Shown: positions 12,621-18,709 of the stretch, one piece after another
Numbering within the stretch: the stretch's first letter is position 1
Layout: the number at the start of each line of letters is the position of its first letter
DNA from: Spisula solida
Taxonomy: Eukaryota > Mollusca > Bivalvia > Venerida > Mactridae
NCBI GenBank assembly: GCA_947247005.1
Contig: OX365949.1
Coordinates: 3,358,001 to 3,422,000, forward strand
Length of the DNA stretch: 64,000 nucleotides
Direction: 5' to 3'
Translations under genes and position numbers: made by a program
Notes under the pieces: generated by a model
Database searches by the model: none
Told to the model about the DNA's origin: nothing
Seen by the model: the letters and a program-made list of their open reading frames with translations, nothing else

Positions 12621-12858
12621 TGTAGTATTTGTACGTCGGAACAGAGGGCTGGCTGTTCCAACCATAACAAGTGGCATCAGCCAATCAGAAGCGTCCTGGT
12701 CTGACGTATGCGCTGGGCCAGCCTTCTCAACTTGTATTCGCTCTCTGTGCTTTATGACTTGTAACTGGAAAGACGTACCTGAAGTTTCCACTTCCCTCTT
12801 AGGTGAGTTAAACTTACATACTGTCTTACTGTAGTCCAGGTAGTGACAATTCACTACA
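12621..12858 (+). repeat. 5' LTR
   Basis: 238 bp from tgtagtatttgtacg to gacaattcactaca, with TG...CA ends. It differs from the 3' LTR at four positions. Confidence 0.95.
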
Positions 12859-12876
12859 TTTGGCGCCGCGATCATT
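12859..12876 (+). promoter_or_regulatory. Primer-binding-site-like sequence
   Basis: Directly after the 5' LTR comes tttggcgccgcgatca. TGGCGCC next to an LTR is the usual form of a tRNA-primed minus-strand start in Ty3/gypsy-like elements. The priming tRNA is not assigned. Confidence 0.65.
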
Positions 12877-13672
12877 TGTTCCTTCGCGTGAAATAGCTTA
12901 CGCGTTTGTTGATATCTGTGCGTGTTTGGGGGATTGACTTACGTTCAATCTTTGGAATATTTGCGTGTAGTGCAGTGCAGGCCGCTATTGAGCTTGCACC
13001 ACGTAAACATTGTTTCCAACAATTACCAAGTGTTGTTGTCCACAAATCAGTGGGACAAAGACGCTATTTTGTGCCTTAAATCGTCGCCGGGATTTTTATT
13101 TTTCCCGTGGTGTGAGCGGCCATTGTTTGCATCACGTGATATTTTTTCTTGGCGACGTAAGGCGCTATAGGTTATTAGCTTGCCGTTTTACGTATCGTAG
13201 GGTGATATTTTGTCGGGAACACGGATATATTTTGAATAAAAATATTTTTCCGCGTTGTGAATTGCCATTTCCGAGATTCTCATCTGGATTTGCACCGCGA
13301 CTTCCTGTTTCCGGTTATTCACCTACGAGCCGTGGTGGCAAGTTAATTTCACTAAAACTGAACGTAAACTCCCAATAAGAACAGATATTGAACATCTTAT
13401 CTTGCACTTTATGTAATTTAAAGGACTGAACCATAGTTTTGTGCCCTTGTAATATTGTTTGGGGTTATTTTGATTTATTTTATGGTTGACTGATTTTCAA
13501 CACAAAAACAATTTGTTTGGGATATTTTATAGATTTATTTGTACCTGACTCTGGTTCATTTGTCCTTACCAATTGGCTCATTGTTTATTATTGTTGTTGA
13601 CCCTTAATTGTGTACCCTTGTGTTATTGACCTGGTATTTCATTGCACATCAATTTTATTAGACCTTATAAAA
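12877..13672 (+). other. Untranslated leader of the LTR element
   Basis: About 800 bp between the primer site and the gag ATG. Short ORFs (up to about 120 codons) occur but show no family resemblance and overlap in different frames. I read it as leader and packaging region. Confidence 0.5.
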
Positions 13673-15493
13673 ATGGCTCAAAAACCAATCCTAGTTAACA
13701 TTAATTATGATAGTTTTGAAAAATTGCAAAAATTAGAGAACATTGGGCCTGCAAGGGCTAAACAAATTGTGGATCTCCGCGGAAATAGACCATTCACCTT
13801 TGAAAATATAAATGATATAAGCGGTATAACAATAACGGAGGAGTTCTTGAATTGCATTAGTTTTAATATGCCCCATAATTCTTACAGTAAGGAGGTGTTG
13901 GAGAATCTTGGAATGTGTTCTGGTGGGGAGTCAGATACGGACACGGATGTGGTCGGATCTGTTCTCACTACACAGACTGTTGAACAAGATTCGGAACTAA
14001 CAATGCCAGAGAATTCCTCACAGGGATTAATAACTGTTCATAGAGCCAATGCACATAAAGGCGATATGCCAATCAAATCAGAAGGTTTTAATGAACCTGA
14101 AGATATTGACGTATCTGAGGGGACAGGGTTAGATTCCCAGCCCCTTAACCCAAATTTGGAGGATGAAATGAGGGGGTGTATAGATGTGATAACGGAGTTC
14201 CAAAAACGTAAACTGGAGCTACCTAAAAATGACATCCGTCAAAATATCCAGAGCACTCGCCCCAAAGAAAGGGCTAAGCGTTCTGAATATAAGACTAAGA
14301 CCCCTGTTTCTCAATCCAAGTTTTACACCAACAACAGACAAGATAATTATCGATCTCCCTCTCGCGAAAGAGATACTGATTACTATGATCACCATCAAGG
14401 TAGTGGTTGGAGTGAGCCTGGAGAAGCCGAACAAAATTTGGTTGGCATTCTAAAAGGCACTCTCCAAACCACTCAGATGTTGGCGGACATGATGAGGGAG
14501 GGTGGTCACCGTTCTAGGGACATGGGGAACAGAATGGCTGAAAGCAGGGCTAATACCCAGAAAATGTGCCAAATTCCCAAGCCCTTAATATATAATGGGA
14601 CCACCGAATGGAAAACATGGCTTAGGAAATTATTAAGTTTCTGTATAAACAGTGGCTGGGAGGGAGAATCTAGAAAATCTGGTATGTTGTGGTGTCTGGA
14701 TGGAAAGCCGGCAGATTACTATGCTAATCTGCTGGACAGACATCCAGATATATCATATTACCAATTAGAGGCCAATTTGACTAAGCGCTTTGGAAAAAAA
14801 GACATTCCGGAGAATTTAATGGCAGAATTTACTACTGCCTGTCAAAAAGACAATGAAGATTTAGATGATTGGGCAGACAGGATTTCTGACCTGGCATTCA
14901 GGGCGTTTCCCGAACTCCCTGATGGCAGGATAGAACAATTGTCGGTCATCAGGTTCTATCAGGGTTGCAATGACAAGAAAGCGGGGCACATGGTCATAAC
15001 TGGCCCAAGCCGCCCTTCCTCTGTCGATGCAGCCGTGGAGGCCATAAGGTGGCATAATCTCAATCATCATGTCATTTTTGGTAAGCCTAAATCAGTAAGG
15101 GCTGTGACTATGGATGAGGCGTCTGCTAGCTCTAGTGAGCAAGTGGTAGTCTCTCCCTCTGTCTTGGCCATTACTAATTCTCCAAGTCGTGGCGCTAGAC
15201 CCATCAACCCTAGAGAAAGCTCAGGGTCCCCTTCCGCGTCCATGTCTGACCGGGTTACTAACCTAGAAAGGCAAATGGGCAAGGTTTTGGTGATGTTGAA
15301 TGATATCAAGGGGGCAGTGAACAAATTGACCTCTGACCCTAGGAAGGTAAGGTTTGAAAAGTCGCCCTCTCCCATGCGTAACAGAACGTTTAACTCAATG
15401 ATATGTTATGCATGCAAACAAGAGGGCCACTTCGCAGCCGAATGCCCTAATAAACGACCTAACACTTCCAAAATGAGTTGGACCGTCCCCTAG
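13673..15493 (+). CDS. Gag with N-terminal helix-hairpin-helix and zinc knuckle
   Basis: A 606-residue capsid/nucleocapsid precursor. The start at 13673 is chosen because its context is good (ataaaaATGG) and the homology begins at once; an in-frame ATG 63 bp upstream adds only a hydrophobic stretch. Residues about 8-60 look like a ComEA-type helix-hairpin-helix (LQKLENIGPARAKQIVDLR), a DNA-binding fold unusual in Gag. A low-complexity charged region follows. Residues about 300-470 resemble Retrotrans_gag (YNGTTEWKTWLRKL, then LTKRFGKKDIP). A CX2CX4HX4C zinc knuckle (CYACKQEGHFAAEC) lies near residues 578-591. The frame is intact. The stop is CCC-TAG-A, and the protease frame lies +1, consistent with programmed frameshifting. 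Confidence 0.88.
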   Translation: MAQKPILVNINYDSFEKLQKLENIGPARAKQIVDLRGNRPFTFENINDISGITITEEFLNCISFNMPHNSYSKEVLENLGMCSGGESDTDTDVVGSVLTTQTVEQDSELTMPENSSQGLITVHRANAHKGDMPIKSEGFNEPEDIDVSEGTGLDSQPLNPNLEDEMRGCIDVITEFQKRKLELPKNDIRQNIQSTRPKERAKRSEYKTKTPVSQSKFYTNNRQDNYRSPSRERDTDYYDHHQGSGWSEPGEAEQNLVGILKGTLQTTQMLADMMREGGHRSRDMGNRMAESRANTQKMCQIPKPLIYNGTTEWKTWLRKLLSFCINSGWEGESRKSGMLWCLDGKPADYYANLLDRHPDISYYQLEANLTKRFGKKDIPENLMAEFTTACQKDNEDLDDWADRISDLAFRAFPELPDGRIEQLSVIRFYQGCNDKKAGHMVITGPSRPSSVDAAVEAIRWHNLNHHVIFGKPKSVRAVTMDEASASSSEQVVVSPSVLAITNSPSRGARPINPRESSGSPSASMSDRVTNLERQMGKVLVMLNDIKGAVNKLTSDPRKVRFEKSPSPMRNRTFNSMICYACKQEGHFAAECPNKRPNTSKMSWTVP

Positions 15494-18070: not shown

Positions 18071-18456
18071 TGGGGGAAGTGCTTTATTCTATTTCTACAC
18101 TTTGGTCAACTTACATTACTGCCCCCGAGACCATTTTCAATTTAAGGCAATTTTTACTTAATCAATTACTGTATTTTAAATTAACTATTTGATAGCAACT
18201 ATGGTTCTGGGTCAGGAAAACAAGTCTTCATATACTTGGGTTCCATTTCATTGTCCCTATGATAGGGGGGCGTGGATCATTATCCTATCTTGTGTTCAGG
18301 TGCCCATGTGACTACCTGTTTGGCTGGGATTTTTTATGAAATTATGGTATATATTAATCATGCCCACGTAGGGTGCATTTTGGATTCTGCAACCTACTTT
18401 TTGTAAAAGATGGGGTTTTCTAAATCGGGTCTTTATCCTGGGTGGGGTTGATTTTA

Positions 18457-18471
18457 TAAAGTTGGGGGGAA
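18457..18471 (+). promoter_or_regulatory. Polypurine tract
   Basis: The run aaagttggggggaa directly precedes the 3' LTR, where plus-strand priming occurs in LTR elements. Confidence 0.75.
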
Positions 18472-18709
18472 TGTAGTATTTGTACGTCGGAACAGCGGGC
18501 TGGCTGTTCCAACCATAACAAGTGGCATCAGCCAATCAGAAGCGTCCTGGTCTGACGTATGCGCTGGGCCAGCCTTCTCAACTTGTATTCGCTCTCTGTG
18601 GTTTATTACTTGTAACTGGAAAGACGTACCTGAAGTTTCCACTTCCCTCTTAGGTGAGTTAAACTTACATACTGTCTTACTGTAGTCCATGTAGTGACAA
18701 TTCACTACA
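18472..18709 (+). repeat. 3' LTR
   Basis: 238 bp, four substitutions relative to the 5' LTR and no indels. It is followed by CATA, matching the four bases before the 5' LTR. Confidence 0.95.

What the first reader, a model, noticed from the sequence alone, without database searches (positions are those of the whole stretch)
12621..18709. LTR retroelement with a TatD-like nuclease in place of pol
Seen: intact LTRs, CATA duplication, primer-site-like sequence, PPT, Gag, protease, then a finger-like segment and a TatD domain with all expected metal ligands (HxHxD, GEVGLN, LHCFSG, TDAPYL), but no RT, RNase H or integrase. Known: TatD proteins are cellular metal-dependent DNases. Inferred: a host nuclease was captured, and the element moves with another element's polymerase. 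A DNA-processing enzyme could act on the cDNA ends, suppress rivals or blunt host defence; all three are guesses.
Basis: partly seen in the sequence, partly recalled or inferred. Interest (0 to 1): 0.93.

Follow-up and report, generated by a model that had tools for sequence, protein, structure and literature searches.

The report
Retrotransposons with a TatD third gene
The element in the window is a worn copy of a jumping gene that has lost its copying enzymes, but relatives in the same genome carry those enzymes and, as a conserved extra gene, a TatD-type nuclease, an arrangement for which the literature searched here showed no precedent.

Summary
In detail: at 12621-18709 there is an LTR element with a CATA duplication, Gag, protease and TatD, and no RT, RNase H or integrase. 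The reading "nuclease in place of pol" is not. The same genome holds eleven LTR pairs of this family spanning about 9.8 kb; the copy read in full is gag - pol (PR-RT-RNase H-integrase-PHD finger) - TatD. The window copy lacks about 3.7 kb (most of pol and the start of the TatD gene), and its TatD gene is also frame-broken. TatD is neither a chance insert nor a replacement but a third gene of a clade: 47 of 50 integrase+PHD matches have TatD downstream, against 1 of 34 more distant integrase matches. In eight families (chosen for long open frames; integrase 54-78% identical) one frame spans the TatD gene, the metal ligands are kept, and TatD diverges in step with integrase (Mantel r 0.90). In 8 of 8 a 3' splice-site motif lies between the pol stop and the TatD start codon, suggesting a spliced mRNA, as for retroviral env. 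Finger-HWR-TatD proteins of the same make occur in data from other molluscs. What the nuclease does for the element is unknown.

The parts
12617..12620 (.). CATA target-site duplication, left copy
12621..12858 (+). 5' LTR, 238 bp, TG...CA; contains a CTTAG|GTGAGT 5' splice-site-like motif at 12798-12808
   Evidence: motif
12859..12876 (+). primer-binding-site-like sequence; tRNA not identified
13673..15493 (+). gag: helix-hairpin-helix (ComEA-like) N-terminus, PNMA-like part, CCHC knuckle
15477..16116 (+). protease and start of the following linker, all that remains of pol
16113..16116 (+). deletion junction with 3-nt overlap; the full copies compared have about 3.7 kb here (RT, RNase H, integrase, PHD finger and the first about 28 codons of the TatD gene counted from its start codon)
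16135..16551 (+). TatD gene, N-terminal domain
16618..16888 (+). TatD gene, C2H2-like finger and following part; reading frame changes inside
16899..17108 (+). TatD gene, 'HWR' segment (another frame)
17228..18070 (+). TatD gene, nuclease domain PF01026 (another frame); metal ligands kept
18464..18471 (+). polypurine tract
18472..18709 (+). 3' LTR
18710..18713 (.). CATA target-site duplication, right copy

Best explanation
SHOWN: the window element is a decayed copy of a Ty3/gypsy-type LTR retrotransposon family, with pol internally deleted. Full-length relatives in the same genome are gag - pol (protease, RT, RNase H, integrase, PHD finger) - TatD ORF. The TatD ORF (N-terminal domain, C2H2-like finger, HWR segment, TatD nuclease) is a conserved third gene of a clade of at least eight divergent families in this genome. 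INFERRED (likely): it is expressed from a spliced subgenomic mRNA, with a donor in or near the LTR and an acceptor just before its start codon, the way env is expressed. INFERRED (weaker, about 0.4): the product is an active metal-dependent nuclease brought to nucleic acid by its finger. It works for the element on DNA or RNA-DNA hybrids around reverse transcription or integration, or against host or rival nucleic acids.
For:: 40 matches of LTR plus leader; 11 LTR pairs about 9.6 kb apart start to start, against 5.85 kb in the window; 120 TatD matches; 16 rows of 93-100% identity and 180 residues or more (the window included), 10 of the 16 in an open 719-codon frame; one copy (L096) with open gag (650), pol (1388; RVT_1 1e-29, RT_RNaseH 6e-32, H2C2 5e-16, rve 1e-11, PHD 3e-8) and TatD ORF (719; 7e-34); the window matches L096, L089 and L090 on both sides of a missing block of about 3.7 kb. 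LTR pairs 100, 100, 100 and 99.6% identical in L090, L096, L091, L089, so the family moved recently; 47 of 50 integrase+PHD rows (53% identity or more, reaching the PHD end) have TatD 0.9-3.0 kb downstream on the same strand; 54 of all 63 rows at 53% or more; 1 of 34 below; chance 0.0005 per row; three divergent TatD families picked before the integrase search all have pol directly upstream (3 of 3); four more, picked with integrase known, likewise; all metal ligands in 8 of 8 families; IN-TatD distance correlation 0.90 (p 0.0003); acceptor motif 8 of 8 (background 161 of 2748 windows), 4 of 4 in the families first examined for it after the motif was noticed; start codon 1-11 nt behind it in 7, 43 nt in one; dN/dS 0.18 for the TatD ORF between two families.
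Against: No transcript or protein data: splicing and activity are unproven. dN/dS of TatD (0.18) is weaker than pol (0.064), with dS near saturation. The eight families were chosen for long open frames, so 'open in 8 of 8' is partly choice; pol is interrupted in L110 and L112, and L110's TatD frame stops a few codons early. 65 of 120 TatD matches have no listed integrase upstream (fragments, split genes, or integrase not scored: 96 of 912 candidates were). 9 of 63 integrase rows at 53% or more lack TatD; of these only L117 was read (a short TatD start remains). L118, a 922-codon TatD ORF with no pol in the 1.1 kb read upstream, differs at two ligand columns. LTRs of the seven further families were not shown. 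The donor motif was found in the window and L096 LTRs and in 3 of 6 other 3' tails.
Confidence: 0.85

Rival explanations
1. One reading: a host nuclease was captured and replaced pol, giving a non-autonomous element mobilised in trans.
For: The window copy itself lacks RT, RNase H and integrase; precedents exist in which LTR elements carry host genes (maize Bs1, passages of PMC13317346).
Against: Copies with the same LTR have pol between protease and TatD; pol lies directly upstream of TatD in eight families; the junction cuts into the TatD gene and shifts frame.
Confidence: 0.03
2. The window deletion is not a DNA deletion but a reverse-transcribed spliced RNA: the missing block runs from GT to AG if the 3-nt overlap is placed accordingly.
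For: Boundaries of the missing block in L096 allow GT...AG; the clade seems to use splicing.
Against: The acceptor is not the conserved one before the TatD start codon but lies about 127 nt further on, without a pyrimidine run; given a GGT overlap, GT...AG needs only one more matching base. None of the 6 fetched copies that reach the junction region shares the junction; the genome-wide junction search did not complete.
Confidence: 0.15
3. TatD is a passenger: a gene that hitch-hikes without helping the element.
For: It evolves faster than pol; 9 of 63 integrase rows have no TatD listed behind them.
Against: All metal ligands in 8 of 8 chosen families at 30-54% TatD identity; splice motif in 8 of 8; TatD behind 47 of 50 integrase+PHD rows.
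Confidence: 0.08
4. The TatD ORF is a host gene family that recruited element promoters, not an element gene.
For: Some animal TatD proteins of this type carry ordinary gene names in databases.
Against: Position between pol and the 3' LTR inside LTR pairs; co-divergence with integrase.
Confidence: 0.02

Closest known systems
Ty3/gypsy (Metaviridae) LTR retrotransposons
   Same: LTRs, 4-bp duplication, gag with CCHC, pol order PR-RT-RH-IN with H2C2 and rve
   Different: PHD finger at the end of pol and a TatD nuclease as third gene
Errantiviruses and other env-bearing gypsy elements (recalled)
   Same: third ORF behind pol, probably made from a spliced mRNA
   Different: the third ORF is a nuclease of the TatD family, not a membrane protein
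Maize Bs1 and transducing retroviruses (Bs1: passages of PMC13317346; retroviruses recalled)
   Same: an LTR element carrying a cellular-type gene, the window copy without most of pol
   Different: here the gene is old and sits beside a complete pol in the copy read in full; Bs1's captured segments are not full-length ORFs
Animal TATDN2 (R-loop resolution quoted from passages of PMC12754012)
   Same: TatD domain at the C-terminus of a long protein; a Phacochoerus TATDN2 is in the list
   Different: separate clade (38 element and finger-HWR-TatD rows together at 100/98)
Finger-HWR-TatD proteins of Saccostrea, Haliotis, Mytilus, Elysia and others
   Same: same parts along the whole length in the rows aligned; they interleave with the element proteins
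   Different: their genomic surroundings could not be read here

Membership tests
Ty3/gypsy LTR retrotransposon (window copy and L096) | LTR pair with TG...CA ends and short target duplication | tested here: met
   window; LTR pairs of L089, L090, L091 with 4-bp flanking matches, L096 pair identical, its duplication not determined:
Ty3/gypsy LTR retrotransposon (window copy and L096) | gag with CCHC knuckle and retropepsin | tested here: met
Ty3/gypsy LTR retrotransposon (window copy and L096) | pol in the order PR-RT-RNase H-integrase | tested here: met
   L096; not met in the window copy itself, which has only PR
Ty3/gypsy LTR retrotransposon (window copy and L096) | primer binding site matching a tRNA 3' end | tested here: inconclusive
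   TGGCGCC beside the LTR; no tRNA compared
TatD nuclease family (PF01026) | profile match over the whole domain | tested here: met
TatD nuclease family (PF01026) | HxH, Glu, His, His, Asp ligands (motif set recalled) | tested here: met
   window; 8 of 8 chosen families; L118 differs at two
TatD nuclease family (PF01026) | TatD fold | tested here: met
   (window domain only)
TatD nuclease family (PF01026) | nuclease activity | not testable with these tools
   needs an assay
Transducing (host-gene-capturing, pol-replaced) retroelement | captured gene absent from the parent element | tested here: not met
   longer relatives carry TatD
env-type third gene | spliced subgenomic mRNA | tested here: inconclusive
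   acceptor motif 8 of 8; no RNA data

The most novel reading that the evidence does not exclude
A clade of Ty3/gypsy retrotransposons, spread through molluscs and perhaps other invertebrates, has for a long time carried an env-like spliced third gene for a finger-guided TatD nuclease. Many genes annotated as TATDN2 or TatD in these animals are in truth retroelement genes. The nuclease and the PHD finger on the integrase form a targeting or hybrid-clearing machinery without counterpart in other LTR elements.
Probability: 0.55. Interest if true: 0.85.

Novelty: new variant of a known kind. Interest (0 to 1): 0.75.

Why it matters
LTR retrotransposons are among the best-known mobile elements, and their extra genes are few (env, some regulators; recalled). 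A nuclease of the TatD family as a standing third gene, kept in step with integrase over families only 54-78% alike in integrase, would be a new kind of element-encoded enzyme. It could also explain why finger-HWR-TatD proteins are so numerous in mollusc data. It is testable at once with existing genomes and long-read RNA.

Tried and rejected
Protein search with gag: 6695 candidates, none significant. Viral contigs with TatD, gag, the finger-HWR alignment and P0148: no relatives. Prokaryote genome contigs: none; one search gave 80 loci with bacterial titles (of 513 relatives), not used further. Phages (11 records) and plasmids (71 records): all matches under 60% identity, five rows listed each. 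Before the genome answered I favoured a capture that replaced pol; overturned it. The gag row was out of frame and is replaced (gag dN/dS 0.47, TatD domain 0.44, window against L096; few changes; protease 0.135). A loose splice-site scan was uninformative (background 39%) and is replaced by the strict one. A structure prediction for a whole relative (alignment A7) was not run: busy, then dropped. Whether other copies share the window's deletion was to be asked by a genome search with window:16044-16186; it did not complete.

Papers. Ten searches: no title or abstract start listed describes TatD in an LTR element; most listed papers were not opened. Opened: PMC6962438 (passage), PMC5840709 (passage), PMC13317346 (passages), PMC12440569 (abstract and passages), PMC6238403 (find, no hit), PMC3286476 (passage), PMC12754012 (passages), PMC5408686 (passage: a TATDN2 retrocopy with a microRNA). 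The library lacks most subscription papers, and no repeat database was at hand, so an earlier description there is possible.
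Full report
What was claimed.

The element is there. The LTRs are 238 bp, 98% identical, with TG...CA ends and CATA on both sides. Gag has a CCHC knuckle, and the next ORF is a retropepsin. TatD_DNase matches over its whole profile with E 1.5e-32, and the predicted structure (pLDDT 92.6) matches solved TatD proteins. RT, RNase H and integrase were not found in the 12 of 25 open pieces scanned between protease and LTR, and the inside of the element aligns throughout to parts of a full copy other than its RT-integrase region.

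The finger and TatD are one protein. A first database search and one with a small alignment (best 120 of 4216 listed) opened a family of animal proteins of up to 762 residues, named sources including Saccostrea, Haliotis, Mytilus and Elysia. Those aligned have a C2H2-like finger (invariant C, C, H, H in the 10 rows chosen), a segment with invariant HWR, and TatD at the end; some also share the N-terminal domain. A profile of 12 of them hits the window in four collinear open pieces, covering profile positions 31 to 743 of 744 with gaps, in changing frames. So the window holds nearly the whole gene, broken by frame changes. In a tree of 77 rows it falls among these animal proteins, apart from bacterial TatD and vertebrate TATDN2 (93/93). 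Several of them are listed as long proteins on contigs of 20-800 kb whose source gave no gene name, which suggests intronless genes; that would fit retroelement genes (inference; the gene-calling method is not known to me).

The genome answers the main question. After many unanswered attempts the window's own genome (932 Mb, 36 contigs, unnamed) could be searched. The LTR with leader has 40 matches. Among them are 11 LTR pairs about 9.6 kb apart start to start, one at 6.1 kb (C11) and a few odd ones, where the window's pair is 5.85 kb apart. TatD has 120 matches; 16 rows of 180 residues or more are 93-100% identical (the window included), 10 of them in an open frame of 719 codons, and most lie just before the 3' LTRs of the long copies. 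A long copy read in full (L096) has three open ORFs: gag (650), pol (1388: protease, RT, RNase H, integrase, PHD finger) and TatD (719); two others read (L089, L090) have interrupted frames. Alignment shows that the window lacks the stretch from shortly after the protease to about 28 codons behind the TatD start codon, about 3.7 kb, with a 3-nt overlap at the junction. Of the nine further stretches compared, the six that reach this place (L089, L090, L091, L093, L095, L096) do not share the junction. LTR pairs of L090, L096 and L091 are identical and of L089 99.6%, so the family moved recently; the window copy, at K2P 0.017 between its LTRs, is older.

TatD belongs to a clade. The integrase-PHD part of L096 gives 97 rows in the genome, 63 at 53% identity or more and 34 at 34-40%, of which 33 end before the PHD finger. 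A TatD match follows on the same strand within 8 kb in 54 of 63, in 47 of the 50 that reach the PHD end, and in 1 of the 34 (the one that reaches the PHD end); chance would give 0.0005 per row. A few loci give more than one row. The searches score only the best candidates (96 of 912 for integrase), so the 65 of 120 TatD matches without a listed integrase include fragments, split genes and unscored neighbours. Three divergent families picked from the TatD list before the integrase search (L110-L112) all have pol directly upstream (3 of 3); four more picked with integrase known (L113-L116) give the TatD ORFs beside it. The families were picked for long open frames; the TatD ORFs are 671-823 codons. 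L110 and L112 have interruptions in pol, and L110's TatD frame ends a few codons early. PHD was confirmed by Pfam in L096, L110, L111, L113, L116 and L117, the ones scanned. L117, one of the integrase loci without TatD, keeps only a short stretch like the start of L115's TatD ORF. L118, picked from the TatD list, has no pol in the 1.1 kb read upstream and differs at two ligand columns.

Conservation. Between the eight families integrase is 54-78% and the TatD domain 30-54% identical; the two distance tables correlate at 0.90 (p 0.0003, 20,000 permutations), and the HxH, E, H, H, D ligands are kept in 8 of 8. dN/dS between L110 and L096 is 0.18 for TatD and 0.064 for the first part of pol, with dS near saturation; the other family pairs were saturated. 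So TatD is under selection, less tightly than pol. The window copy departs at two conserved columns, as expected of decay. In the tree the element TatDs interleave with proteins of other animals, for example L116 with P0168 (98/81) and L096, window and L110 with P0001 (88/94). This suggests that those are element genes too; their surroundings could not be read.

Expression. Between the pol stop and the TatD start codon all eight families have a run of T followed by CAG or GCAG, a 3' splice-site motif; the start codon follows after 1-11 nt in seven and 43 nt in L096. The same motif occurs in 161 of 2748 background windows. I noticed it in four families; the four examined after that have it too. 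The families are related, so no exact probability is claimed. The LTRs of the window and L096 hold CTTAG|GTGAGT, a 5' splice-site motif, and three of six other 3' tails hold a similar one, LTR limits there not shown. I infer a spliced mRNA for the third gene, as for env.

Function. [quoted passage not shown] Most likely the product is a nuclease guided by its finger that acts on DNA or RNA-DNA hybrids during the element's cycle; defence against rivals or host sensing is not excluded. This step is a guess at about 0.4.

Known or new. No listing in ten paper searches describes TatD in an LTR element; few listed papers were opened, and repeat databases were not available. Maize Bs1 is the nearest precedent found for cellular genes in an LTR element (passages of PMC13317346), but there the captured segments are not full-length ORFs. 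I file this as a new variant of Ty3/gypsy elements.

Noticed in passing
25162-29207 (-): DIRS-like retroelement: ORFs of 400, 665 and 415 aa that look like tyrosine recombinase, RT/RNase H and gag (read by eye).
   Followed up: no
13673-13880: Gag begins with a helix-hairpin-helix domain like ComEA (PDB 8dfk_A E 0.004; Pfam HHH_3 below cut-off); also below cut-off in L096.
   Followed up: partly
L096:2954-7117 and L110, L111, L113, L116, L117: PHD finger at the end of pol in the elements of this clade that were scanned; 33 of the 34 more distant integrase matches end before it.
   Followed up: partly
G000:C16 2.47-2.81 Mb: Five partial TatD matches (query residues about 12-145, 46-52% identity) within 340 kb: perhaps a tandem host cluster or a domesticated gene.
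   Followed up: no
L118 (G000:C1:55534700-55539700): 922-codon TatD ORF, no pol in the 1.1 kb read upstream, different at two ligand columns.
   Followed up: partly
35210-35639; 40161-40608/44340-44787; 56490-56846/59482-59838: 43-bp tandem array and two long inverted-repeat pairs (95% and 99%), perhaps other mobile elements.
   Followed up: no
L091 (G000:C11:35720500-35726950): Another shortened copy, rearranged in gag and pol but with an open TatD ORF and identical LTRs.
   Followed up: partly
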